From contig NZ_CP074349.1 in NCBI RefSeq assembly GCF_018343775.1, positions 248,001 through 312,000 on the forward strand: a DNA stretch of 64,000 nucleotides. The letters run 5' to 3'. The DNA comes from Pseudomonas cichorii (lineage in GTDB: Bacteria; Pseudomonadota; Gammaproteobacteria; Pseudomonadales; Pseudomonadaceae). Below are positions 131 to 53,143 of the stretch, in pieces. The notes under the pieces were generated by a model. That model was not told the origin of the DNA, searched no databases, and saw only the letters and a list, made by a program, of their open reading frames with translations. The translations under genes were made by a program, and so were the position numbers. Each line of letters starts with the position of its first letter. Position 1 is the first letter of the stretch.

Positions 131-402
131 GCAGACGCTCCGGGTTTTTATTTTTTGCGAAAGCGAATATTACATTTTCGTTACAGAAAAAAGCAGCGCT
201 TTTTCCGAAAGTTGCATAGGAAATGTGAGGTTGTTCGTGTTCTTTTGTGAACATCTTGTTTGGGTAGATGCCGTCATTTTTTTTTGGGATTGCTCCTACG
301 TTTGAATGGGATTGCATGTCCTTATGAGCACTGAGGGAGCCTTCTACTATCGCGGTCACTACGCCATGCAGGCGTTCATATCGCGGTTTTCAGGGGGTGT
401 GT
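131..402. other. AT-rich intergenic region between glpT and the TonB-C-like pair
   Basis: Divergent spacer of about 270 bases. It has several A/T runs (around 150-200 and 275-290) of the kind that carry promoters for both flanking genes. Short reading frames here have no credible start context. I see no strong dyad or RNA gene. Confidence 0.5.
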
Positions 403-1086
403 ATGAGGTTTATTGCGTTTGTTTTTGTTCTTTTGCTGCCTCTTTCGGTGCAGTCTGCCGATGCCTTGATTGTCCCCCTGTTTACCCCCAAGCCTGTATA
501 TCCGCCAGCATTGATCAGAAGCCGATACACCGGAAAGGTACGGGTTCAGTTGGTGGTGAGTTCTGGCGGGAATGTGCAGGACGTTCGGGCGATAGAGAGC
601 GGGCATCCACAATTGACTGAGGCTGCTGTGGGGGCTTTGGCTCAATGGCGCTATCGCCCATGGGCTGGAACCGTGGGCGCCCCACCGCAAATCAGCATCA
701 TGATCCCTGTCATTTTTGGCTCTCACGGAAACAGCCACTTCAATCAGGAGGTCGATGTCGGCCTGAGCAATATCCGCTGTGCCTATTTGAATAACGAAGT
801 TGATACGCAAAACAGAGACTTTCCGGAAGAGCCGTTAAATAAAGTCGACGTGTTCTGGTACACCGGTCAGTTTTTATTCAGTAGCTACGCGGCTCTTCTG
901 CGTAGCGAGGATGAGCGTAAGCTCTTGCTTGAGCAGTTGGGGCGGTTGGTTCCAGAGATTGTGAAAAGCTGCCGGCTTAATCCAGAGCACAGGTATGGCG
1001 ACTACCTTCCTGTTTCTATCAAGAGCCTGTTGAGTGGGCTGGCACAGTCAGACGATGTGCCTGGCGCATTGCAAGGAGCCTTGTGA
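403..1086 (+). CDS. Exported TonB C-terminal-domain protein, first of a tandem pair
   Basis: 227 residues. I start at ATG 403, with AGGGG about six bases upstream, rather than the GTG at 397. Residues 1-20 form a signal peptide (MRFIAFVFVLLLPLSVQSAD). Residues 27-100 match the TonB C-terminal fold: a YPPAL segment, the strand GKVRVQLVV, and the closing WRYRPW. There is no N-terminal membrane anchor and no Pro-rich linker, so it is not a working TonB energy transducer. The C-terminal 120 residues are of no family I know but share spaced motifs with the next gene: a Cys in an IRCAYLNNEV segment, a second Cys near SCRLNPE, and a DYLP tail. Likely a periplasmic protein of unknown role, co-transcribed with the following paralogue, which begins immediately after its stop. 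Confidence 0.75.
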   Translation: MRFIAFVFVLLLPLSVQSADALIVPLFTPKPVYPPALIRSRYTGKVRVQLVVSSGGNVQDVRAIESGHPQLTEAAVGALAQWRYRPWAGTVGAPPQISIMIPVIFGSHGNSHFNQEVDVGLSNIRCAYLNNEVDTQNRDFPEEPLNKVDVFWYTGQFLFSSYAALLRSEDERKLLLEQLGRLVPEIVKSCRLNPEHRYGDYLPVSIKSLLSGLAQSDDVPGALQGAL

Positions 1087-1731
1087 ATGCCGAGCAGGTT
1101 CCATGGGTTTGGTGTGCTGTTTACAGGTCTTTTGTTTGTGGGGTGTGTCACCGCGGCAGGCTCCTACCCGGTGCCACTGTCTATGCCGGACATCGAGTAT
1201 CCAGAAGAGCTGATCGGTTCCTCTGCAAAAGGAGAGGTCGTTGTACGGATCTTCATTCAGGCCGATGGAGGGGTTCGGTTCCTTGAGGTGCTTGATGCGA
1301 CCGAGCCCCGATTCGTGGCAGCGACCAAAAAGGCTGTTGAGCAATGGCGCTTCGAGCCCTGGACGCCATCCGCCTCCAATCCAGAGGGGGAGGCAGTAAA
1401 AGTCACTTACCGCTTTTTAGGAAGACCGCATAAAGAACCGTCGCTGACAGCCAATGTCGAGTTAAAGAAGGTGTCATGCCGTCAGCTCAACGAGGAAGTG
1501 GAGAGCAACTGGCGCAAAAGCGGTCGCTCTCATGAGGCTGAAACCCTGGCCCGGACGGAGTTCTATCTTTCCAGTGGCAATGTCATCTATCCGTTTCTTC
1601 CAGGCGATGCACGCGAGGCGCTGGTGATGGAGTTTATTAACGCGATTCCGGGCATCCTGAAAAACTGCCAGCAAAATCCTCAAAGAAAATATGTGGATTA
1701 CCTTCCAGAGAGTGTCAGGCGGAATTTGTAG
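1087..1731 (+). CDS. Exported TonB C-terminal-domain protein, second of a tandem pair (possible lipoprotein)
   Basis: 214 residues. The ATG abuts the TGA of the preceding gene (TGAATG), so the two are translationally coupled. The N-terminus is a hydrophobic export signal ending LLFVGC, an imperfect lipobox, so it may be a lipoprotein with Cys20 acylated. Residues 30-105 carry the TonB-C fold (IEYPEEL, GEVVVRIFI, WRFEPW). The C-terminal half repeats the paralogue's Cys motif (VSCRQLNEEV), second Cys (KNCQQNPQRK) and DYLPES tail. The pair arose by tandem duplication and has diverged strongly. Function is unknown. The 3' end runs into a perfect palindrome at 1740-1787 shared with the convergent gene. 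Confidence 0.75.
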   Translation: MPSRFHGFGVLFTGLLFVGCVTAAGSYPVPLSMPDIEYPEELIGSSAKGEVVVRIFIQADGGVRFLEVLDATEPRFVAATKKAVEQWRFEPWTPSASNPEGEAVKVTYRFLGRPHKEPSLTANVELKKVSCRQLNEEVESNWRKSGRSHEAETLARTEFYLSSGNVIYPFLPGDAREALVMEFINAIPGILKNCQQNPQRKYVDYLPESVRRNL

Positions 1732-4894: not shown

Positions 4895-5075
4895 AGGACT
4901 CCCCGACGAACCGCTGTCGGTGTAGCCCTTGAACCCGAAAGTTCAAGGTGGTGATTGCAGGAGGTCTTAAGGCTTTCCGTCAAGCGGACATGCACACCGA
5001 CCCCAACGTGCAACCCCCGTGGTTGTGCGTATCGGCTCAGGGACATGACCGACTGGCAAGCACTCCAGGGAGCGG
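4895..5075 (-). ncRNA. ssrS: 6S RNA (ssrS)
   Basis: Reading the minus strand from about 5075, the sequence starts near CGCTCCCTGGAGTGCTTGCC, runs through GTCGGTCATGTCCCTGAGCC, and ends near 4895 with a complementary GGGGAGTC-type closing strand. This is the signature of Pseudomonas 6S RNA, the long hairpin with an open central bubble that mimics a promoter and sequesters sigma70 RNA polymerase in stationary phase. Position between zapA and fthC matches the conserved locus. Ends are estimates, within about 10 bases. Confidence 0.9.
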
Positions 5076-29193: not shown

Positions 29194-30777
29194 TCACGCG
29201 AAGACCAGTCCCGATGACTGCAGCAGTTCTTGTGTATAGGGCTGCTGCGGTCTGGCGAAGATCTCCCGTGAAGGGCCTTGCTCGACCACCTTGCCGTCCT
29301 TGATGACGATCAGGTCATGCGCCAGCGCATGAACCACTGCCAGATCATGGCTGATGAACAGATAAGTCAGGCCGTGGCGAATCTGCAGGTCGCGCAGCAA
29401 GGCGACGATCTGTTTCTGCACCGTGCGGTCCAGTGCCGAGGTGGGTTCGTCCAGCAGAATCAGCTCCGGCTCAAGCACCAGCGCCCGGGCAATCGAGATG
29501 CGCTGGCGCTGACCGCCGGAGAATTCATGAGGATAACGATGGCGGGTGGCCGGGTCGAGCCCGACTTCCTGCAGGACCCGGATGACCGCCTGCTCGCGTT
29601 CCTCGGCAGTGCCGATCCTGTGGGTGACCAGTCCTTCGGCAATGATCTGTTGCACGGTCATGCGTGGGCTGAGGCTGCCGAACGGATCTTGAAAGACCAC
29701 TTGCAACTGGCGCCGCAAGGGGCGCATCAGGTGCTGACTATGCAGGCTCAGTTCCTTGGTGCCGAATCGGATGCTGCCTTCGGAGTCGACCAGGCGCAGG
29801 ATCGCCTGGCCCAGGGTCGATTTGCCCGAACCGGACTCGCCGACGATGCCCAGCGTCTTGCCCTTGAGCAGTTCAAAACTCACCCCGTCCACAGCCTTGA
29901 TGTAGCGAGGGTTGCGTTTGAGCCAGCCTTTGCTCAACGGGAACCAGACTTTCAGGTCCTGTACCGACAGCAGGGTGTTCCGATGGCTAGAAGGCACCGG
30001 CTCGCCGTCAGGCTCGGCGTTTATCAACAGTCGACTGTAAGGGTGCTGCGGGTGGTCGAACAGGGCCTGGCAGTCAGCCTGCTCGACGATCTGTCCTTCA
30101 CGCATCACACAGACCCGCTGGGCTATGCGGCGGACCAGATTGAGGTCGTGGCTGATGAGCAGCAATGACATGCCCAGGCGCTGTTGCAGGGATTTGAGCA
30201 GTTCGAGGATCTTCACCTGCACCGTCACATCCAGCGCCGTGGTGGGTTCATCGGCAATCAGGAGGTCAGGCTCGTTGGCCAACGCCATGGCGATCATGAT
30301 GCGCTGCCGCTGACCGCCGGAAAGCTGATGAGGGTAAGTCTTGAGCCGCGCGAGCGGGTCACGGATGCCCACCAGGTCCAGCAGTTCAAGCGTCCGGTCC
30401 CGGGCGGCCTTGCCCTTGAGGCCCTTGTGGGTGATCAGGATTTCGCCAATCTGTTTCTCGACCGTATGCAGCGGGTTCAACGAGCTCATGGGCTCTTGAA
30501 AGATCATCGCCACCCGGTTGCCGCGCAGGTTGCGCAGTTGCCTGTCACTGGCACTCACCAGGTCCACGCCGTCGTAGCGGATCGTACCCTGGGTGCTGAC
30601 GGTCTTTGCCGGCAGCAGGCGCAGGATCGAGTGGGCCGTGACGGATTTGCCCGAGCCGGATTCACCCACCAGCGCCAGGCATTCGCCGCGTCGGATATCG
30701 AGGCTGACACCATGCACCACTTCGTGGCCGTTGAAGGCGACGCGCAGGTCGCGTATTTCAATCAGGGTCTCTTGCAT
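29194..30777 (-). CDS. yejF: Peptide ABC importer, fused dual ATPase (YejF type)
   Basis: 527 residues, two complete ABC ATPase domains in one chain. Walker A motifs are GESGSGKS near residue 37 and near 315, ABC signatures LSGGQRQRI and FSGGQRQRI, and Walker B LLIADEPT and ILLDEPTS. Each half ends in an oligopeptide-permease-type C-terminal extension with HPQHPYS and RPQQPYT. This fused form is typical of YejF. It starts one base after the yejE stop, so the four genes form one operon. Confidence 0.92.
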
Positions 30778-30778
30778 G

Positions 30779-31801
30779 TCAGCTCCGGGGATCGAAAGCG
30801 TCGCGGCAGGCTTCGCCGATGAACACCAACAGGGAAAGAATCAGCGCCAGTACCACAAAGGCGGTCAGCCCCAGCCAGGGGGCTTGCAGATTGCGCTTGG
30901 CTTCACCGATCAGTTCACCCAGCGAGGCGCTGCCTGCGGGCATGCCGAAGCCGAGAAAATCCAGCGCGGTCAGGGTGGCGATGGCACCCGTGACGATGAA
31001 GGGCAGATAGGTCAGGGTGCTGGTCATGGCGTTGGGCAGGATATGCCGCCACATCAGCGCAGTATCGGTCAGGCCCAGGGCGCGGGCTGCCTTGACGTAT
31101 TCCAGGCTGCGGCCGCGCAGGAATTCGGCCCGTACTACATCCACCAGTGCCAGCCAGGAAAACAGCGCCATGATGCCCAGCAACCACCAGAAATTCGGTG
31201 AAACGAAGCCGGACAGAATGATCAGCAGATACAGTACCGGCAAACCGGACCAGATTTCCTGAATCCGCTGGCCGATCAGGTCGGTCATGCCGCCGTAGTA
31301 ACCCTGTATCGCACCGGCACAGACCCCGATCACGGTACTGATCGCGGTCAGCAGCAGGGCGAAGAGGATGGAAATCCGCGCACCGAACAGCACCCGCGCC
31401 AGCACATCCCGGGCCTGCTCGTCGGTGCCCAGCCAGTTGTGGCTGCTTGGCGGGCTGGGCGATGGGGCTTGCAGGTCGTAGTTGATGGTGTCATAGCTGA
31501 AAGGGATCGGCGCAAACAGCATCCAGCCGTTTTTGGCGGCGATCAGTTGGCGTACATAGTCGCTTGAGTAGTCCGGCTCGAAGGGCAGTTCGCCACCGAA
31601 ATCGGTTTCCATGTAGGTGTGCAGGGCAGGGTAATACAGCGTGCCTTCGTAGCTCAGCACCAGTGGTTTGTCGTTGGCGATCAACTCGCCACACAGACAG
31701 ACCAGCATCAGCGCGAGGAAGATCCACAGCGACCACCAGCCCCGCCGGTTGGTCTTGAACAGCGCCATGCGGCGTTTGCTCTGGGGAGAAAACTCGAACA
31801 T
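30779..31801 (-). CDS. yejE: Peptide ABC importer, permease (YejE type)
   Basis: 340 residues from ATG 31801 ([20 protein letters not shown]), overlapping the yejB stop by one base (TGATG). The longer open frame to 32593 is an out-of-register shadow of yejB. An N-terminal helix is followed by a large periplasmic loop (about 50-130), then the DppC-like permease domain with an EYVKAARALGLTDTALMWRH EAA loop. Forms the channel with YejB. Confidence 0.92.
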   Translation of the reverse strand: MFEFSPQSKRRMALFKTNRRGWWSLWIFLALMLVCLCGELIANDKPLVLSYEGTLYYPALHTYMETDFGGELPFEPDYSSDYVRQLIAAKNGWMLFAPIPFSYDTINYDLQAPSPSPPSSHNWLGTDEQARDVLARVLFGARISILFALLLTAISTVIGVCAGAIQGYYGGMTDLIGQRIQEIWSGLPVLYLLIILSGFVSPNFWWLLGIMALFSWLALVDVVRAEFLRGRSLEYVKAARALGLTDTALMWRHILPNAMTSTLTYLPFIVTGAIATLTALDFLGFGMPAGSASLGELIGEAKRNLQAPWLGLTAFVVLALILSLLVFIGEACRDAFDPRS

Positions 31802-32868
31802 CAGGCGCTCCTCGCGGAAAAGTCGATGCGCGGGTCGACCAGCGTGTAGCACAGGTCGCCCACCAGCTTGATCAGCAGGCCGAACAGCGTGAACAGAAAC
31901 AGTGTGCCGAACACCACCGGATAGTCCCGCGAAACCGCCGCCTCGTAGCTCATGCGCCCCAGCCCGTCGAGGCCGAAGATGGTTTCGATCAGCAGGGAGC
32001 CGGCGAAAAACACCTCGATCAAGGCCTGCGGAATCCCGGCGACCACCAGCAGCATGGCGTTGCGGAACACATGGCCATACAGAACCCGGTGCTCCGTAAG
32101 GCCCTTGGCTCGTGCCGTGACCACATACTGACGGCTGATCTCGTTGAGAAAGCTGTTCTTGGTGAGGATGGTCAGCGTGGCAAAACCGCCGATCACCAGG
32201 GCACTGACCGGCAGCACCAGATGCCAGAGGTAGTCCTTGACCTTGCCCCAGGCACTGAGGTTGTCGAAGTTGTCCGAGAGCAGGCCTTGCGCCGGAAACC
32301 AGCTGAGGTAACTGCCCCCGGCAAAGACCACGATCAATAAAATGGCGAACAGAAACGCGGGCGTGGCATAGCCGATGATGACCAGCGTGCTGCTCCAGAC
32401 ATCGAATGCACTGCCATGCCGCACGGCCTTGCGGATGCCCAGCGGTATGGAGATCAGGTAGGTAATCAGCGTTGCCCACAGTCCCAGAGACAGTGATACC
32501 GGCAGTTTCTGGGCAATTAGTTCCGTCACTTCGGCACCACGAAAGAAGCTGGTGCCGAAATCCAGCTGTGCATAATTCTTGAGCATCAGCCACAGACGTT
32601 CGTGCATGGGCTTGTCGAAGCCGTAATGCTCCTTGATCGCTTCGATCAGTGCCGGGTCCAGCCCACGAGTGCTGCGGCTTGCGGTGCCGGAGGCCGCCAC
32701 TTCGCCGCCACCACCGCCGATCCCGTTGGGACTGAAGCCCTGAATGCGGGCGATGGCCTGCTCGACCGGGCCGCCGGGTGCCGCCTGTACGATCAGGAAG
32801 TTCACAATCAGGATGGCCAGCAGCGTGGGGATGATCAGCAGCAGGCGTCGAATCATATAAGCCAACAT
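31801..32868 (-). CDS. yejB: Peptide ABC importer, permease (YejB type)
   Basis: 355 residues. DppB-like permease: N-terminal [20 protein letters not shown] helix, a periplasmic loop holding an unusual Gly run (IGGGGGEVA), then the membrane core with the EAA-type loop [20 protein letters not shown]. The stop overlaps the yejE start. Starts one base after the binding-protein stop. Confidence 0.93.
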
Positions 32869-32869
32869 G

Positions 32870-34753
32870 TTACGGCTCCTTCGCGGCGGTGGTCTTGCCT
32901 GTCAGGGCCGAAGCCTGGGCATTGGTCAGTGCTGTCGGGCTGATCTGCCACCAGGTTTCCAGGCCAATGTCGTAGACGGGCTCTATCTCGGGGCGGCCAA
33001 AACGATTGGCGAACACCAGCGGCGTTCCCTTGGAGTAGTAGTTGGGAATCATGTAGTAGCCCCATTGCAGGACCCGATCCAGGGCGCGGGCATAAAGCAC
33101 CATGTCCTGACGACTGTTGGCGGCGACCAGGCCGTCGATCAACCTGTCCACAGCGGGATTGCGCAAGACCATGGCGTTGGAGCTGCCCACTTGCGTGGCG
33201 CTTTGCGAGCCAAACAGGTTGTACAGTTCACGGCCCGGGGAAATCAGCGGATTGCCGTTTTTCGGCAGACTGACCACGATCATGTCGTAGTCCCGGGCGT
33301 TGAGCCGGTTGATGTACTGCGCCGAATCGATGCGCATGAAATTCAGGGTGATGCCGATCTGCGCCAGCGTTCGTTTGAACGGCAATATCAACCGGTCGAA
33401 GCCGCCCTGGCCGTCGAGAAAGCTGAAGGTCAGCGGTTCGCCCGCTGCGTTGACCAGCTTGTTATTGCGCGGATGCCAGCCCGCCTCGGCCAGCAGCTTC
33501 AGGGCCTGTAACTGTTTGTCGCGGATATAGCCGCTGCCGTCGGTGCTGGGTGGCTGGTAGACCTGTGTGAATACCTCATCCGGGACCTGGCCGCGCAGTG
33601 GCTCGAGAATCTTCAGTTCGGCTGCGTCCGGCAATTGCGTGGCGGCCATCTCGCTCTTGGGGAAGTAGCTTTGTTCCCGCACGTAGAAACTGCGCATGAC
33701 CCGACGATTCAGCCACTCGAAGTCCCACAGCAACGATAACGCCTCGCGCACCCGCCGATCCTGAAAGACGAGGTTGTCCAGATTGAAGACAAAGCCCTGT
33801 GCCGAAACGGGGCGTTGCCGGGCCAGAATGTGTTTTTGCAGACGTCCGTCGTCGATGGCCGGGCCGCTGTAGCCGACGGTGTAGCCCGCCGATGAGAACT
33901 CCCGGTTGTAGTCGAAGGCTCCGGCCTGCAGCAGTTGCCGGGCGATCTCCGTGTCGCCGTAGAAATTCACGGTCAGGGTGTCGAAGTTATACAGCCCGCG
34001 GCTGACCGGCAGGTCTTTGGCCCACCAGTCCTTGACCCGTTCAAAGACCACACTGCGTCCGGCGTCGACTTTCGCGACCCGGTAAGGCCCGTTGCCCAGC
34101 GGTGCCTCGAAACCTCCACCGTTGGCAAAGTCTCTGTTCTTCCACCAGTGTTCGGGGAGGATGCGCATGCTGGCGATATCCAGGGCCAGCAGGCGGTTGA
34201 GGTTGTTCTTGAAGTCGAAGCGAATCTGTAGCGGTCCTTCCATGACCACATCCTTGACGTCCGCATACATGGGCCGGTAGCTGAAGCTGGCCTTGGTGGT
34301 CATCAGTTCAAAGGTATAGCGCACATCATTGGCGGTGACGGGTGTGCCGTCCTCGAAGCGCGCCTTGGGGTTGATGAAGAAACGAATCCAGAGGCCGTTG
34401 GGGTCCATTTCCATTTTTTCCGCGATCAGGCCGTACACCGTGTAGGGCTCATCCAGTGAGCGATAGGCCAGCGGGGAATAGACCCAGGTGTCGAGTTGAA
34501 CCACGTTGATGCCTTGATCGACATACGGGTTCAGGTAATTGAACTGGCCGATTTCTTCGGCCGAGCGTGTCAGCGAGCCGCCCTTGGGGGCGTCCGGGTT
34601 GACGTAAGCGAAGTGCTGAAAGCCCGCAGGGTATTTCGGGGCTTCGCCATAGACCGTCAAGGCGTGGGTCGGCGCGGCCAGCAGTGCCTGCCCATAACCG
34701 TACAGAGCAACGCCCAGCAGCAGGCGCCTTAGAAAACGGGAGGTACGCAACAT
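32870..34753 (-). CDS. yejA: Peptide ABC importer, periplasmic binding protein (YejA type)
   Basis: 627 residues with a signal peptide ([20 protein letters not shown], cleaved near LLAAPTHA). The body matches family 5 solute-binding proteins, larger than OppA and typical of Yej[21 protein letters not shown], then the C-terminal [20 protein letters not shown]. In E. coli and rhizobia, YejABEF imports peptides including microcin C and nodule peptides. The receptor gene upstream is separated by 146 bases containing two stem-loops, which may lower expression. Confidence 0.92.
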
Positions 34754-34801
34754 GATGGGGCTGTCCTTGTACGCACTGAATACTCATGTACTGCGAAAAA
34801 A

Positions 34802-34893
34802 CCTCCGGCCGGGGAAGGTGGATGAAACCTGTAGGGCCGGAGGGGCGAAGCGCAACTCAAGGCGTGGCTCACGGAGCGGGTATGAGCCACGCC
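34802..34893. terminator. Two stem-loops between the receptor gene and yejA
   Basis: First dyad: GGCGTGGCTCA and TGAGCCACGCC (34861-34871, 34883-34893), a perfect 11-bp stem just after the receptor stop. Second: CCTCCGGCC and GGCCGGAGG (34802-34810, 34835-34843). Neither has a strong U run, so they look more like attenuating or message-processing hairpins than full terminators. Confidence 0.55.
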
Positions 34894-34899
34894 ACCACC

Positions 34900-37623
34900 T
34901 CAGAAGTGATAGGTCATGCGGGCGAACAGCGTGCGGCCCAGCGGATCGGCATAGCGCGGGTCGTAGCCGGACTGGAAGTTGTAGGCCTGATTGGAGAACG
35001 GCGGATCGCGGTCGAACAGGTTGCGGACCCCGGCATCCACATCCAGCACCTTGTCGAAGGTATGCCCGACCGAAAGGTCCCAGAGCGTATACGACGCCAC
35101 CCGGGCGTTGGTGGTGCGGTCATAGTCGTTGTAACCGCTGGTGAAGCGGTTGGTGAGGGACGCGCGGCTGTTGCCCAGCGACCATGTACCGGTCAGGACA
35201 TGTTTCCAGCGCGAGATCACGCCATCGCCCTGAAAGTCCCCGACCTTGTCGGTGTAGGGGCCGTCGATGATGTTCTGGTAGTCGTAGCGGGTCACATAGG
35301 TGCCGGTCATGCCCAGGCCGAACTGGCCGTACGGCGTGTTCGGGAAGCGATAGTCCAGGGTGACGTCCACACCATTGGTCTTGACGATGCCCAGGTTCGC
35401 GTTGCCGGTCACGATATTGGCAATCGAACCATCCGGGTTGCGGATGAAGCGGTCGGCGTAGGTGGTGGGGTCGTCGAAGACGGTCGATTCAGGGAACGAC
35501 TGAATCTGGTTGGAGATGTGAATCCACCAGAAATCCAGACCCATGGAAAGGTTGCTGACCGGCTGGTAGACGAAGCCCAGTGTCACGTTGCGGGCCTTTT
35601 CGGGAGCCAGCTCGGTATTGCCGCCACTGTTGTTGAGAAACTGCTGATTGCAATCGCGTCCGGCATTACCGCCAGGCTGCACGGTACCGCCTGCGCACAG
35701 GGTCGGGTCGTTGTAGTAACCCTGGGTGAAGCTCAGGCTGCGCGGCGCATAAAGCTCATACAGAGAAGGCGCGCGGAAGCCCTCGCTGTAGGCTCCTCTG
35801 ACCACCAGTTGCTTGAACGGCTGGAAGCGGAATGAGTATTTGGGGTTGGTCGTGCTGCCGAAGTCGCTGTATTTGTCGTGACGAATGGCAGCACTCAGTT
35901 CCAGGCTGTCGAGGACCGGAACGTTCAATTCGGCGTATTGGGCCTTTACGCTGCGTTCGCCCGAAACACTGCCCGCCGCGTCTGCCCCCAGGCTGCTGAC
36001 GTCATTGACGAAGGCTTCGTACTCCTGATGCATTTTCTCCTTGCGGTATTCACCGCCCAGCGCCAGGCCGGCCGGTCCGGCACCAAACCAGTCACCGATT
36101 TCCCGGCTGATACGGGCGTCGATACCGGCCACCCGGCCCACGGCGCTTGAGTACTGGCCATGGTATTCGTTGGCATCGATCAATGCCTGGCCTGCCGCGG
36201 TCTGCGGACCGAACGGGTTGATGATGCCGTTGGCCAGACCGGCGATCATGGCCGCATCGCTGACATAGCCGTTGGTGAGTGAGGAAATGACCTTGTTCTG
36301 GTTGTATGACGCGCCGACGTTGTAGTCCCAGCCGCTGACCATGCCATCGAAGCTCAGCAGAAAGCGCTGGCTGGTGTTCTGGTCGCTGGCACCCCGTGGC
36401 CCGGCTGCGGTTTCCCGCCATGCGGTATCGATGGGCTGTGTCGGGTCGAGCACGAAACTGGTCGGCAAGGGCGTGATGCCGTTGCCGGGGTAGTAGGGCG
36501 ACGAAGCGTCCAGCGACAGGCCGGTCAGGGGGGCCGGGCCGATGTCGGTGTGGTTATTGTTGCGGGCCCAGAAGTATTCGAGGTTGACGTTGTGGTCGTC
36601 CGCCAGCTTGCCGGTGGCCTTGCCGAAAAAGGAAGTCTTCTCGGTCTGCGGAATCAGGTCGATGTATTCGCGGGTGCTGAAACGGCAGATGCCGTTGCTG
36701 GCGATCAGGCTGGGCCCGTTGCAGTTGCCGCCGGCCAGCGGATTCGTGCCATTGTTGCCCTGGTAATAGTTGCCGGGGAAGGCGGTCCCTGAGGTCTGGT
36801 TAAGACCGCGTCCCGGCACATAATCCCTGGCGAATGAGCGGTCGTTGGCATCCAGGTTCTGCTGCTTGTTGTAGTTGAAGACCCCCATGACATTGAAGCG
36901 GTCTTCTTCAAGGTCACCGAAGCCCCAACTGGCGCTCATGTCCTTGGTGGCTCCGCCGCCACTGTTGGTGGGGGTTTCACCGCCCAGGCTCAAGGTGCCG
37001 TCGGTCATGGACTTCTTGGTGATGAAGTTGATGACCCCACCGATGGCGTCAGTGCCGTACAGCGCAGAGGCGCCGTCACGCAGCACTTCCACCCGGTCGA
37101 TGGCGGCAAACGGGATCATGTTCAGGTCGATGGCGCTGCCGTTGGGTGTGCCGACACCCGACAGGGCGTTGTTCGCCAGACGGCGTCCGTTGAGCAGAAC
37201 CAGCGTCTTGTTTGCGCCAATCCCGCGCATGTCGGCGTAGGACGCGCCTCCCGTTCCGGCACCGACCGAACCGGCACTGTTGTTGATCGACTGGCTGCCG
37301 GTGATGCGCTGGACCATTTCCTGAGTGGTAGTCACGCCCTGTTTTTTCAGGTCATCGGCGCGCAGGATGGTGATGGGCACGGCCGTCTCGGCATCGACCC
37401 TGCGGATCGCCGAACCTGTGACTTCGACACGCTGCAACTGGGTCGTGGCGGGTACGACGGCGGCGCTGGAGGAGACGCTTGTACTGCTTGTGTCCGCATC
37501 GACGGCATCGGCCGCCTGAGCACCGCTTATGCCCATGGCCAGTGCGCAGAGCAGCACACGGGGATGGCGCCGTACCGCAATGGCCAGGGGGTTGAGGGTG
37601 CAACCGGGAAGATTCATCAGCAT
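34900..37623 (-). CDS. TonB-dependent outer-membrane receptor
   Basis: 907 residues; ATG 37623 is chosen for its GGAA site and for giving a normal signal peptide (cleaved after GISGAQA, about residue 37). The plug starts near QLQRVEVTGSAIRRVDAE, and includes MRGIGANKTLVLLNGRRLAN and VLRDGASALYGTDAIGGVIN. A beta-barrel follows, ending in the terminal aromatic of ARMTYHF. No N-terminal signalling (STN) extension is present. The plug style resembles receptors for peptides or other non-siderophore substrates, and the gene sits between exbD and a peptide importer. Substrate unknown. Confidence 0.93.
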   Translation of the reverse strand: MLMNLPGCTLNPLAIAVRRHPRVLLCALAMGISGAQAADAVDADTSSTSVSSSAAVVPATTQLQRVEVTGSAIRRVDAETAVPITILRADDLKKQGVTTTQEMVQRITGSQSINNSAGSVGAGTGGASYADMRGIGANKTLVLLNGRRLANNALSGVGTPNGSAIDLNMIPFAAIDRVEVLRDGASALYGTDAIGGVINFITKKSMTDGTLSLGGETPTNSGGGATKDMSASWGFGDLEEDRFNVMGVFNYNKQQNLDANDRSFARDYVPGRGLNQTSGTAFPGNYYQGNNGTNPLAGGNCNGPSLIASNGICRFSTREYIDLIPQTEKTSFFGKATGKLADDHNVNLEYFWARNNNHTDIGPAPLTGLSLDASSPYYPGNGITPLPTSFVLDPTQPIDTAWRETAAGPRGASDQNTSQRFLLSFDGMVSGWDYNVGASYNQNKVISSLTNGYVSDAAMIAGLANGIINPFGPQTAAGQALIDANEYHGQYSSAVGRVAGIDARISREIGDWFGAGPAGLALGGEYRKEKMHQEYEAFVNDVSSLGADAAGSVSGERSVKAQYAELNVPVLDSLELSAAIRHDKYSDFGSTTNPKYSFRFQPFKQLVVRGAYSEGFRAPSLYELYAPRSLSFTQGYYNDPTLCAGGTVQPGGNAGRDCNQQFLNNSGGNTELAPEKARNVTLGFVYQPVSNLSMGLDFWWIHISNQIQSFPESTVFDDPTTYADRFIRNPDGSIANIVTGNANLGIVKTNGVDVTLDYRFPNTPYGQFGLGMTGTYVTRYDYQNIIDGPYTDKVGDFQGDGVISRWKHVLTGTWSLGNSRASLTNRFTSGYNDYDRTTNARVASYTLWDLSVGHTFDKVLDVDAGVRNLFDRDPPFSNQAYNFQSGYDPRYADPLGRTLFARMTYHF

Positions 37624-37815
37624 GGTAATTTCCGACTTATTCCAGACGTTATTGAAATGGCCTTGTGAGCCCTCTTTTCCCGATGCGGTTGTGCCCATCA
37701 GGAGTTTCACTTCTTCCTTTCCGGCAAGCCGCTCCCCTCCAGGGGCTTTGCGGCCCACGGACGAGCGTGCTCACGGGAGTGCGGTCAACAGGCTTCGCGC
37801 GGCGAAGCCCTCATG

Positions 37816-38217
37816 TCATTTCGAGGTCATGACGGATATCTTCGTAATGCCCGATCGCTCGATCGAGGCCATGGCCTTGGCCACCTGGCCATAGTTCACG
37901 GCCGTATCGGCCTGCAACTGGACGCGGATTTCCGGGTCTTTGGCCTTCTCGTCCTGCAGGCTTCTTTCCAGCAGTTCGGGGGCAATTTCAGATTTGGCCA
38001 GATAGAACTTGCCGTCCTGATCGACGCTGACCACCACCGGGTCCTTTTTCTCGGCTGGTGCCACCGAGTCGGTCTTGGGCAGGTTGACCTTGATCGCATT
38101 GGTCATCAGCGGTGTGGTGACGATGAACACCACCAGCAGCACGAGCATCACATCCACCAATGGCGTGACGTTCATTTCGCTGAGCACTTCATCGCTGTCC
38201 TGGTTGGAAAAGGCCAT
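37816..38217 (-). CDS. exbD: ExbD/TolR family transducer
   Basis: 133 residues. Short cytoplasmic start (MAFSNQDSDEVLSEMNVTPL), the single helix with the essential Asp in LVDVMLVLLVVFIVTTPLM (about residue 25), then a periplasmic domain. ExbD with ExbB converts proton motive force to TonB movement. Start overlaps the exbB stop (TAATG). A GC-rich hairpin (37791-37809) follows. Confidence 0.94.
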   Translation of the reverse strand: MAFSNQDSDEVLSEMNVTPLVDVMLVLLVVFIVTTPLMTNAIKVNLPKTDSVAPAEKKDPVVVSVDQDGKFYLAKSEIAPELLERSLQDEKAKDPEIRVQLQADTAVNYGQVAKAMASIERSGITKISVMTSK

Positions 38218-38924
38218 TAGCTTGCCTCCCGAACGGAGTGGTTGTGGCGGGTGGCGATGGGTTGACGCGTGACGGCGAAGGCGCTGCGCTGAGCGAGCGA
38301 ATCGAAGTCATGGGCGAAGTCGTCCATGTCGGCCACGGCCAGCTTCAGGCGGCGCAGGAAGAAGTTGTAGATCAGCACCGCTGGCACCGCGACGGCGATC
38401 CCGACCCCGGTGGCAACCAGAGCGTGGCCGATGGGGCCTGCCACCGCTTCAAGGCTGGCCGAACCCGTGAGGCCGATGCTTTGCAGTGCCTCCATGATGC
38501 CCCAGACCGTACCGAACAGGCCGATGAAAGGTGCGGTGCTGCCGATACTGGCCAGAATGGCCTGACCGTTTTCCAGTGCCCGGCGTTCTTTCTGGATCTG
38601 TTGGCGCAGATTGCGTTCCAGGCGGTCGGAACGGTTGATGGTGTGGGCCAGTTGCTGGGTGGTACGAGGTGCGTCTTCGACCGCCATCGCTTCAAAGCCG
38701 CTGTTGGCGATACGGGCCAGTGCGCCCGGATACTGGGAAGCGTGTTCGGCCGCCGTCAGCAGATCCGGGGCACTCCAGAAGGCCTGGGTGAACTGTTTGT
38801 TCTGGGATTTCTGCCTCATGTACTGCGCCGACTTGATCAGCAACAGGGCCCAGCTCAATACGGAAAACAGAATGAGTGCCCAGAGCACGGCCGGGACAAT
38901 CATGGAAGAAAGCGATGCGTTCAT
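38217..38924 (-). CDS. exbB: ExbB/TolQ/MotA family proton channel
   Basis: 235 residues. Three membrane helices: N-terminal VPAVLWALILFSVLSWALLL, and a central pair in the conserved GSTAPFIGLFGTVWGIMEAL and ATGVGIAVAVPAVLIYNFFL. The conserved Thr/Glu region lines the proton path. It is the second gene of the tonB-exbB-exbD set. Confidence 0.94.
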   Translation of the reverse strand: MNASLSSMIVPAVLWALILFSVLSWALLLIKSAQYMRQKSQNKQFTQAFWSAPDLLTAAEHASQYPGALARIANSGFEAMAVEDAPRTTQQLAHTINRSDRLERNLRQQIQKERRALENGQAILASIGSTAPFIGLFGTVWGIMEALQSIGLTGSASLEAVAGPIGHALVATGVGIAVAVPAVLIYNFFLRRLKLAVADMDDFAHDFDSLAQRSAFAVTRQPIATRHNHSVREAS

Positions 38925-38974
38925 GGTTTACACCTCACCAGCTTGAATAAAGTTGTCGGTTGTTATCCGCCGGA

Positions 38975-39814
38975 TCATTCCGGAAGCTTGAAGTCGATGG
39001 TCTGTGTCGCGAAGCCTTCGATAGGCGTGTCACCACGTTTGGCCGGGATGAACTTCCAGTTGCGCACGGCTTCCACGGCTGCTTCGTCCAGGACCGGTTT
39101 GCCGCTGGATCTGGTCACCTCAACACTGCCGGCCCGGCCATTGGCCAGAACCTTGATGCGCAGAATCACGCGACCTTCCCAACTGCGTCGTAACGCCAGA
39201 CCCGGGTACTCGGGCGGCGGATTACCAAGGCTGGCGAGCCCTGAAACGGCTGCGCTTTCCTTGACCGGCGCCGCAGGTGCTGGAGGGGCGGGCGAAGGTG
39301 TCGGCGGTGCCGGGGTACTCGGGGCACTGGGCGCAGGCGGTGCCGGCGGCGCGGGTGGCCTTGGCTTTTGTACGGGCTCCGGTTTCTTGACCGGTTTGGG
39401 TTTTTCGACTTTCGGCTTTTCCACCGGTTTGGGCGGTGGCTTGACCGCGTCCGGGTCCTCAACCGGTTTTTCGGGCTCGGGCTCGGGGGGCGGAGGTGGC
39501 GGCGCAGGTGGCGGCGCAGGTGGAGGTGGCTCCGGAGGCGGCGCTTGCGGTGTCGGTGGTGTCGGGCTGGTCAGCTCAATCGTCATTTCCGGAACCTGGG
39601 GCGCAACTTCCGGAAGCTCGGCTTTGGCGGTCTGCATGTACCACCAGACCACACCGTGAATAAGTACCGAAGCGGCAATCAACAGGAAAACCTGCGGTTT
39701 ATTCAGACTGCCAGGTCGTGAGGTATTGGCTGTAAACGGAATACTCTGCCATGCCGTGGGAACTTCACCGGGTAATGGATCAGAGACCGATTTCAGGGTT
39801 GCCGCATCATTCAT
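38975..39814 (-). CDS. tonB: TonB energy transducer
   Basis: 279 residues from ATG 39814 with AGGGAG upstream. A cytoplasmic stretch of about 35 residues precedes the anchor helix VFLLIAASVLIHGVVWWYMQ, which includes the functional His. A long Pro/Lys/Glu-rich periplasmic linker (about 80-185) follows, then the C-terminal domain (YPGLALRRSWEGRVILRIKV to the WKFIPAKRG strand). A complete, working-looking TonB dedicated to the adjacent receptor. Confidence 0.94.
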   Translation of the reverse strand: MNDAATLKSVSDPLPGEVPTAWQSIPFTANTSRPGSLNKPQVFLLIAASVLIHGVVWWYMQTAKAELPEVAPQVPEMTIELTSPTPPTPQAPPPEPPPPAPPPAPPPPPPEPEPEKPVEDPDAVKPPPKPVEKPKVEKPKPVKKPEPVQKPRPPAPPAPPAPSAPSTPAPPTPSPAPPAPAAPVKESAAVSGLASLGNPPPEYPGLALRRSWEGRVILRIKVLANGRAGSVEVTRSSGKPVLDEAAVEAVRNWKFIPAKRGDTPIEGFATQTIDFKLPE

Positions 39815-39858
39815 TAAAGCTCCCTCGGAATAGTTGAAGGGCAATAAAAGTCCGTTCA

Positions 39859-39875
39859 AACATTTCGTGAATGTT
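39859..39875. promoter_or_regulatory. Candidate operator upstream of tonB
   Basis: AACATT-TCGTG-AATGTT, a perfect 6-bp dyad 45 bases from the tonB start, with partly symmetric flanks (TTCA/TGAA). Position suits a regulator site for the whole import block. It does not match a Fur box. Confidence 0.4.
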
Positions 39876-40249
39876 CAAATACTGGAGGGCTGCACATTTA
39901 ACAGGCGCACGGTTCCGTGGAGCTGCAAGTCAGGCTCAATCGGATAAAAACGGTTTACGGATTATGAAGATGGCATTGAGCGTCCTTTTTCTTATCGCGT
40001 ACCCGAAGGTAGCGAGGGTTCCTGAAGGCTAGTTAGCAACCGCTATGCCAGAAACTTTCAGGAAGTGGTCTGTAATGGATGAAATAGAGCGGATGTCGCA
40101 TTCATGTAATTTTTTATCGAATCCTTGGAAAATCTGAGCTGGGCCCACTGTTTATCAAGGGGTGAGGTCATTAAGTCGAGGGCGAAAGAATACCCTCTGT
40201 TTTTTCAGACGATATCAAAAAGACACCAGTTAAAATCCGGCTGACGGCA

Positions 40250-53023: not shown

Positions 53024-53143
53024 CGCTGCGGGCTTGACCGGTAGCCGGGCGTTGCAGCAGTCGATCATCGTATGCTGCTGCAGCCCACCCCGGCTGCTTA
53101 ATCCTTGAACTACGCCGACCGATGAGCGGCGAATGAGGAATAC

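What the first reader, a model, noticed from the sequence alone, without database searches (positions are those of the whole stretch)
29194..39814. Self-contained outer-to-inner membrane import system: TonB-ExbB-ExbD, receptor and YejABEF
Seen: eight same-strand genes in order tonB, exbB, exbD, receptor, yejA, yejB, yejE, yejF with overlaps or short gaps. Known: YejABEF imports peptides such as microcin C, which usually cross the outer membrane through porins. Inference: here a dedicated energised receptor would feed YejA, allowing uptake of peptides too big for porins, for example siderophore-like peptides, toxins or host peptides. Chemoreceptors lie on both sides.
Basis: partly seen in the sequence, partly recalled or inferred. 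Interest (0 to 1): 0.75.

Follow-up and report, generated by a model that had tools for sequence, protein, structure and literature searches.

The report
TonB-powered peptide import operon
A Pseudomonas genome carries a compact, conserved set of eight genes that looks built to pull a peptide-like molecule through both cell membranes, with its own power supply for the outer one, which bears on the open question of how large peptides reach this kind of inner-membrane importer.

Summary
All eight genes are present, minus strand, in the stated order. The block is a conserved unit. The receptor occurs in 57 of 298 Pseudomonas genomes; in 46 of 46 fetched type A loci (receptor 70-99% identical) exbB, exbD and yejABEF accompany it, tonB in 45 (one contig end). 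Sister type B receptors (63-67%) keep yejABEF in 25 of 27 loci, tonB-exbBD in none. Receptor plus Yej-type importer has a published precedent: P. aeruginosa SppR-SppABCD, a putative xenosiderophore transporter; a P. aeruginosa receptor fragment groups with type B. New here: the dedicated TonB-ExbB-ExbD variant; a covarying leader before tonB, absent from Rfam; and relatives outside Pseudomonas whose receptors lie beside Opp-class peptide importers (15 of 65 loci; 0 of 11 control receptors), some with M3 oligopeptidases or S66/NlpC-type peptidases known from murein-peptide breakdown. Best reading: TonB-powered uptake of an oligopeptide-type ligand that feeds YejABEF. Ligand unknown; metallophore and murein peptide both stay open. 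Absence of a Fur box is only weak evidence. The flanking chemoreceptors are not conserved, and terminator-like hairpins separate receptor from yejA, so a single transcript is not shown.

The parts
38975..39814 (-). tonB: TonB-family energy transducer, 279 aa
   Evidence: TIGR01352 75.6 bits (cut-off 27.1), PF03544
38217..38924 (-). exbB: MotA/TolQ/ExbB proton channel protein, 235 aa
   Evidence: PF01618; TolQ 170.4 bits (cut-off 221) and ExbB 132.9 (cut-off 206.2), neither passed
37816..38217 (-). exbD: ExbD/TolR family, 133 aa
   Evidence: PF02472; TolR 117.3 bits (cut-off 127.3), ExbD_1 91.4 (cut-off 152.95)
34900..37623 (-). TonB-dependent outer-membrane receptor, 907 aa
   Evidence: PF07715 plug and PF00593 barrel; no NCBIfam model above its cut-off; model nearest PfeA/PirA/FepA/Cir in the PDB
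32870..34753 (-). yejA: periplasmic solute-binding protein of family 5, 627 aa
   Evidence: PF00496; E. coli YejA 2.8e-123, MbnE 2.6e-105
31801..32868 (-). yejB: permease
   Evidence: NF011712 529.4 bits, cut-off 445
30779..31801 (-). yejE: permease
   Evidence: NF011596 470.1 bits, cut-off 439
29194..30777 (-). yejF: fused double ATPase
   Evidence: best model NF011713 741.1 bits, below its cut-off 834
39812..39894 (-). conserved leader just before tonB (ends with its ATG): helix 1 about 39857-39877, helix 2 about 39819-39842 covering the Shine-Dalgarno GAGGGAG
   Evidence: model R1 hits 47 of 67 sources, all type A; elsewhere in own genome only a match at E 0.92; helix 1 covaries in 6 of 7 pairs; not in Rfam
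34796..34893 (-). receptor-yejA spacer: stem 34893-34861, and terminator-like stem 34843-34802 followed by T6
   Evidence: sequence; folds of 24 type A and 9 type B spacers, no shuffle control; the terminator scan of the region found no excess over shuffles

Best explanation
The block encodes a complete two-membrane importer for an oligopeptide-type ligand. The receptor binds the ligand outside and is opened by its own TonB-ExbB-ExbD; YejA catches the ligand in the periplasm; YejB/YejE/YejF take it into the cytoplasm on ATP. Shown here: gene content, conservation as a unit, sister variants with and without TonB-ExbBD, repeated linkage of this receptor clade to peptide-class importers and peptidases, a conserved leader at tonB. 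Inferred: that receptor and YejABEF handle the same ligand, that the ligand is peptidic, that the TonB set serves this receptor, and that the leader controls tonB translation by hiding its Shine-Dalgarno.
For: Eight-gene order in 46 of 46 type A loci (tonB 45) and receptor-yejABEF in 25 of 27 type B loci. Type A monophyletic for receptor (support 0.925), yejA (0.998) and yejB (0.925), so the parts travel together. In 65 receptor relatives outside Pseudomonas (a capped list) 20 have a family 5 binding protein, 18 Opp-class permeases, 15 both, against 0 of 11 neighbourhoods of other receptors in the own genome. M3 oligopeptidases in five of the 65 and in the halomonad-like L214 locus, where Opp permeases, ATPase, M3 peptidase, tonB, exbB, exbD and receptor (50% identical) lie on one strand. 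L214 is sister to types A and B with support 0.999. YejA is E. coli YejA-like, whose cavity is reported as 8253 cubic angstroms, larger than those of DppA or OppA (PMC10924461 passages). A pocket signature is shared by the nine type A YejAs examined.
Against: No ligand, no expression data. 42 of the 65 distant loci show neither a family 5 binding protein nor such permeases within the flanks held. Controls come from one Pseudomonas genome while the relatives are mostly Burkholderiales. Family 5 binding proteins also bind nickel, opines and metallophores. The nearest solved receptors are catecholate siderophore receptors. Two type B receptors (L193, L194) have lost yejABEF and lie beside another ABC importer. 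A terminator-like stem precedes yejA.
Confidence: 0.68

Rival explanations
1. A siderophore or metallophore importer: the receptor takes up a metal-loaded foreign metallophore, possibly peptidic, and YejABEF carries it inwards, as proposed for SppR-SppABCD and as MbnT-MbnE do for copper methanobactin.
For: SppR precedent (PMC12506151 passage); P. aeruginosa fragment P0081 groups with type B; MbnE is among the closest solved relatives of YejA and pairs with the TonB-dependent MbnT (PMC7558416 passage); receptor nearest PfeA/PirA/FepA by sequence and model; FecR genes upstream of L169 and L194 and an ECF sigma gene upstream of L194.
Against: No Fur-box match above chance upstream of tonB (best 12 of 19 positions), though five other receptor genes of the genome gave only 11-13 as well, so the test is weak; oligopeptidases or S66 peptidases, not reductases or esterases, beside distant relatives.
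Confidence: 0.22
2. The ligand is a murein (cell-wall) peptide, scavenged from lysed neighbours; the block is a TonB-driven counterpart of YejBEF-YepA.
For: YejBEF-YepA takes up muropeptides in Agrobacterium (PMC9790009 passages). S66 LD-carboxypeptidases lie beside distant receptors in two layouts: before the binding protein, permeases and receptor (L057, L068, L071) and directly after binding protein and receptor (L110, L112, L114, L115, L117); neighbours of L110 and L115 include amidase and D-Ala-D-Ala carboxypeptidase genes; L215 has an NlpC/P60 protein with sub-threshold YkfC-type SH3 matches.
Against: No murein gene beside the window block or in 73 type A/B loci by the S66 model. YepA is reported as exclusive to Alphaproteobacteria. 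The triad receptors are only about 33-34% identical to the window's and lie outside its 46-leaf clade.
Confidence: 0.22
3. Two neighbouring but functionally separate units: a TonB-ExbBD-receptor cassette and an unrelated YejABEF.
For: 146-base spacer with terminator-like stems; yejABEF also exists alone elsewhere in the genome (L013); L193/L194 receptors without yej.
Against: 46 of 46 and 25 of 27 conservation of the junction in two sister clades, in varying surroundings.
Confidence: 0.08

Closest known systems
SppR-SppABCD of Pseudomonas aeruginosa (primary paper not held; passages of citing papers seen)
   Same: TonB-dependent receptor co-transcribed with an ABC transporter; a P. aeruginosa receptor fragment (63% identical, P0081) falls among type B receptors. 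That SppABCD is of the Yej type, and that P0081 is SppR, are recall and inference.
   Different: Type A carries its own tonB-exbB-exbD and the tonB leader; type B lacks both in the loci examined.
E. coli YejABEF (microcin C importer)
   Same: Permeases above the NCBIfam cut-offs; YejA 38-39% identical.
   Different: No receptor or TonB genes belong to the E. coli system; microcin C enters by OmpF (PMC10233263 table passage). Only 2 of 16 E. coli YejA ligand-contact or pocket positions are identical in the window's YejA (positions from PMC10924461).
NppA1A2BCD of P. aeruginosa (passage in PMC10128002)
   Same: Yej-type importer; a similar two-binding-protein set lies elsewhere in the own genome (L014).
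   Different: No receptor beside it; window YejA is 47% and 40% identical to the two L014 binding proteins.
MbnT-MbnE methanobactin uptake
   Same: TonB-dependent receptor handing a peptide-derived ligand to a YejA-type binding protein (PMC7558416 passages).
   Different: Inner-membrane step reported as unknown there; here a full YejBEF set and TonB-ExbBD are encoded.
YejBEF-YepA muropeptide importer of Agrobacterium (PMC9790009, passages and section 10)
   Same: Yej permease and ATPase with a YejA-like binding protein.
   Different: Works on cell-wall fragments already in the periplasm; no TonB mention found in its text; YepA reported only from Alphaproteobacteria.

Membership tests
YejABEF importers | yejB and yejE above NCBIfam subfamily cut-offs | tested here: met
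   529.4 over 445 and 470.1 over 439
YejABEF importers | YejF equivalog cut-off | tested here: not met
   741.1 against 834, though it is the best model; so member of the subfamily, not the same protein as E. coli YejF
YejABEF importers | YejA of family 5, nearest to solved YejA | tested here: met
   E. coli YejA 2.8e-123, 38.7% identity over 563 aligned residues
TonB-dependent receptors | plug and 22-strand-type barrel domains | tested here: met
   PF07715 and PF00593; model pLDDT 71.8, Foldseek to PfeA E 4.7e-31. TonB box only seen by eye
SppR-SppABCD type | receptor in the SppR clade followed by Yej-type importer | tested here: inconclusive
   window receptor is in the sister clade, not in the one that holds P0081; identity of P0081 with SppR is inferred
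Fur-regulated siderophore receptors | Fur box before the operon | tested here: inconclusive
   no match above chance; 3 sites with at most 3 mismatches in the genome, none in the window; other receptor genes gave no better matches, so low power
YepA muropeptide-binding proteins | YepA fingerprint residues | not tested
   residues are in a figure that is not held
Microcin C or peptide transport | uptake of the ligand | not testable with these tools
   needs mutants and binding assays

The most novel reading that the evidence does not exclude
The window block is one member of an undescribed, modular class of TonB-dependent peptide-scavenging systems spread over Gamma- and Betaproteobacteria. One receptor clade is paired with exchangeable inner-membrane peptide importers: with a periplasmic M3 oligopeptidase that trims the cargo for a small-pocket Opp importer in Acinetobacter-like and halomonad-like members, with S66 LD-carboxypeptidases in Burkholderiales, and in Pseudomonas with YejABEF, whose large cavity needs no trimming. 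Murein peptides are one candidate cargo. In type A a two-hairpin leader acts as a switch on tonB, setting the energy supply.
Probability: 0.3. Interest if true: 0.75.

Novelty: new variant of a known kind. Interest (0 to 1): 0.55.

Why it matters
E. coli YejA has a cavity far larger than porin-sized peptides need, and the authors of its structure ask how larger peptides would pass the outer membrane (PMC10924461 passages). A conserved receptor-plus-YejABEF unit with its own TonB drive gives a concrete, testable answer in Pseudomonas, and a possible entry route for peptide antibiotics. The peptidase-linked relatives suggest that TonB-driven peptide uptake may be a wider nutritional strategy than siderophore-centred annotation ('iron complex outermembrane receptor') implies.

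Tried and rejected
Chance adjacency: rejected by conservation. Chemoreceptor link: the yejF-side chemoreceptor cluster was in 4 of 49 type A loci; the other one was not among the 45 neighbour clusters printed (a greedy gene caller that also picks spurious frames), so treated as incidental. Fur control: no match above chance, but the positive control failed too. Promoter scan: 0 sites against 3.5 expected. The tonB leader as a protein extension: rejected, because a one-base length difference and a stop shift the frame in some species. RsmA site: considered and dropped, as the GGA is not kept in all rows. RNAalifold on the plain MAFFT alignment found only the invariant helix 2 and no covariation; helix 1 appears only after alignment to my structure, so its covariation leans towards that structure. 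Structure model: fold only, plug poorly modelled, no ligand hint. One search was a translation in a wrong frame; one search crashed and was redone; one search used a binding-protein seed that was in fact an M3 peptidase, corrected.
Full report
Observation. The eight genes stand as described, on the minus strand between 29194 and 39814, and the family assignments hold. Two refinements: YejF stays below the cut-off of its own model, and the ExbB/ExbD pair lies between TolQ/TolR and ExbB/ExbD by score. The genome is a single 5.98 Mb contig. Its closest named neighbours in these searches are P. congelans (91% receptor) and P. cerasi (92%), so I infer the P. syringae group.

Copies in the genome. 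Four YejA homologues exist: the window's, one of 60% with a complete yejABEF but no receptor within about 10 kb, beside a sigma-54 type regulator (L013), and an NppA1A2-like pair (L014). The genome has 6 ExbD/TolR and 8 TonB C-terminal matches and 11 other receptor loci similar enough to be found with this receptor. The window's TonB set is therefore one of several, and 'dedicated' rests on linkage.

Conservation. The receptor matched at E <= 1e-150 in 57 of 298 Pseudomonas genomes and in 2 of 145 genomes of the order, one of them the own genome. I fetched 73 loci other than the own one. Two classes emerged. Type A: 46 loci, receptor 70-99%, with exbB, exbD, yejA, yejB, yejE and yejF in 46 and tonB in 45; the exception ends at a contig end. 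Type B: 27 loci, receptor 63-67%, yejABEF in 25, tonB or exbBD in none within the flanks held. Seventeen genomes carry both, from the match column, leaving out G098, whose two matches are one split receptor. The 14 named Pseudomonas loci agree: 9 type A with all eight genes, 5 type B. In receptor trees type A is monophyletic (0.925). Type B is monophyletic only if L193 and L194, which have lost yejABEF, are included; A plus B has support 1.0. The lone yejABEF of the own genome nests with A and B in the yejA and yejB trees (0.889 and 0.967), and type B yejA has weak support (0.197).

Known precedent. SppR of P. [quoted passage not shown] the primary paper is not held. A partial P. aeruginosa receptor (P0081, 63%) groups with type B. 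I therefore take type B as the SppR-like form, by inference, and type A as a variant with its own TonB set. Eight of the 120 receptor homologues listed carry the STN signalling domain (PF07660), all at 63-68% identity. FecR genes lie upstream of the type B loci L169 and L194 and an ECF sigma gene upstream of L194. The window's receptor has no STN match.

Relatives outside Pseudomonas. None of the 65 showed a YejABEF set; yejB- and yejE-like matches there were 24-33% identical. Profiles built from these loci and the own genome found a family 5 binding protein in 20 of 65, Opp-class permeases in 18, both in 15, ExbB with ExbD in 9; in 11 neighbourhoods of other receptors of the own genome: 0, 0, 0 and 1. 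Caveats: some seeds come from loci that are also counted, the control is one Pseudomonas genome, and 42 of 65 show neither part. Five loci (L072, L075, L079, L087, L098) have an M3 oligopeptidase; Pfam confirmed it for L075. Nine match an S66 LD-carboxypeptidase profile (L122 doubtful, as the frame overlaps the receptor); Pfam confirmed L057, L071, L110, L115 and L117. In L110, L112, L115 and L117 the S66 gene starts 4 to 102 bases after the receptor gene. L110 also has amidase, S13 D-Ala-D-Ala carboxypeptidase and a second S66 gene nearby.

The bridging locus. One genome of another family of the order (G426) has, on one strand, Opp permeases, a fused ATPase 58% identical to YejF, an M3 peptidase with a signal-like start (by eye), tonB, exbB, exbD and a receptor 50% identical to the window's. 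Upstream lie family 5 binding proteins (one confirmed by Pfam, others alike by eye) and an NlpC/P60 protein with sub-threshold YkfC-type SH3 matches. In a 72-leaf receptor tree it is sister to types A and B (0.999), inside a 46-leaf clade (0.999) in which 18 leaves have no detected partner; one inner node is unsupported (0.041). The simplest story is a peptide receptor that keeps its TonB set and changes its inner-membrane partner.

Binding pocket. At 16 positions reported to contact or line the E. coli YejA ligand (PMC10924461, section 16 and passages), the window's YejA keeps 2. Nine type A sequences agree with each other at seven positions without exception, and six type B sequences differ from them at positions 456 and 490 in all cases. 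So type A probably has its own ligand, different from that of E. coli YejA and perhaps from that of type B.

Leader of tonB. The 83 bases ending at the tonB start code (39812-39894) contain a variable hairpin followed by a nearly invariant stretch whose helix covers the Shine-Dalgarno. A model from 38 distinct sequences matched once in 47 of 67 sources, all type A (51 type A sources; the misses are L050 and three cut by contig ends), and in none of 16 others (type B, Acinetobacter, other yej loci of the genome). In the own genome the next match has E 0.92. Of the pairs, 95.0% are standard, against 89.9% in shuffles and at most 52.3% when slid; 6 of 7 pairs of helix 1 change on both sides in some sequence. 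The alignment was fitted to the structure, so this is support, not proof. It is not in Rfam. Its role as a switch is inference.

Spacer. Between receptor and yejA all 24 type A spacers folded here form strong stems, some with T runs, some made of repeat palindromes; 8 of 9 type B spacers fold too. No shuffle control was run, and the scan of the whole region found no excess of terminators. It suggests attenuation or an mRNA end between the two halves.

Regulation by iron. The best match to a recalled Fur consensus before tonB was 12 of 19, within the shuffle range. The genome has three places with at most three mismatches, none in the window. Five other receptor genes scored 11-13, so this does not exclude Fur.

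Literature. Searches with YejABEF or YejA and TonB-dependent found 6 and 7 papers. I opened passages of two of them, neither of which links a receptor to YejABEF; the rest were seen only as listings. In the ten searches made I saw no description of the eight-gene type or of the peptidase-linked relatives; the library lacks most subscription journals.

Verdict. Observation confirmed; interpretation partly supported; a new variant of a known kind, with a broader and less certain possibility that it belongs to an undescribed class of TonB-driven peptide scavengers.

Noticed in passing
window 39812-39894 (-): Covarying two-hairpin leader before tonB, specific to type A loci, not in Rfam; may be a translational switch.
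   Followed up: yes
L013:10360-17471 (own genome 3.328 Mb): A second, receptor-less yejABEF followed by a sigma-54-dependent regulator gene; its yejA and yejB nest with the receptor-linked ones.
   Followed up: partly
L193 and L194: Type B receptors without yejABEF, followed by a GntR/UTRA regulator, a flavoprotein and (L194) an NMT1-type binding protein and permease: another change of importer.
   Followed up: partly
L110, L112, L114, L115, L117: Binding protein of family 5, receptor, S66 LD-carboxypeptidase in a row, near peptidoglycan genes in L110 and L115: possible murein-peptide uptake units.
   Followed up: partly
L214, L215: Opp importer, M3 peptidase, tonB-exbB-exbD and receptor on one strand in a genome of another family.
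   Followed up: partly
window 397-1086 and 1087-1731 (+): Two adjacent small TonB C-terminal-like proteins at the window's edge, without exbB/exbD seen there.
   Followed up: no
window 4896-5074 (-) and 53040-53098 (+): 6S RNA and a gabT RNA motif.
   Followed up: no
L059, L060, L061, L066, L067, L069, L070, L083, L084: TldD/PmbA-type metallopeptidase gene near the receptor in nine loci by a one-seed profile (Pfam only for L066); may be a plain chromosomal neighbour.
   Followed up: no
upstream of receptor in several type B loci, e.g. L169:7341-8413: Two small genes that look by eye like an Xre-RES toxin-antitoxin pair between two receptor genes; not scanned.
   Followed up: no
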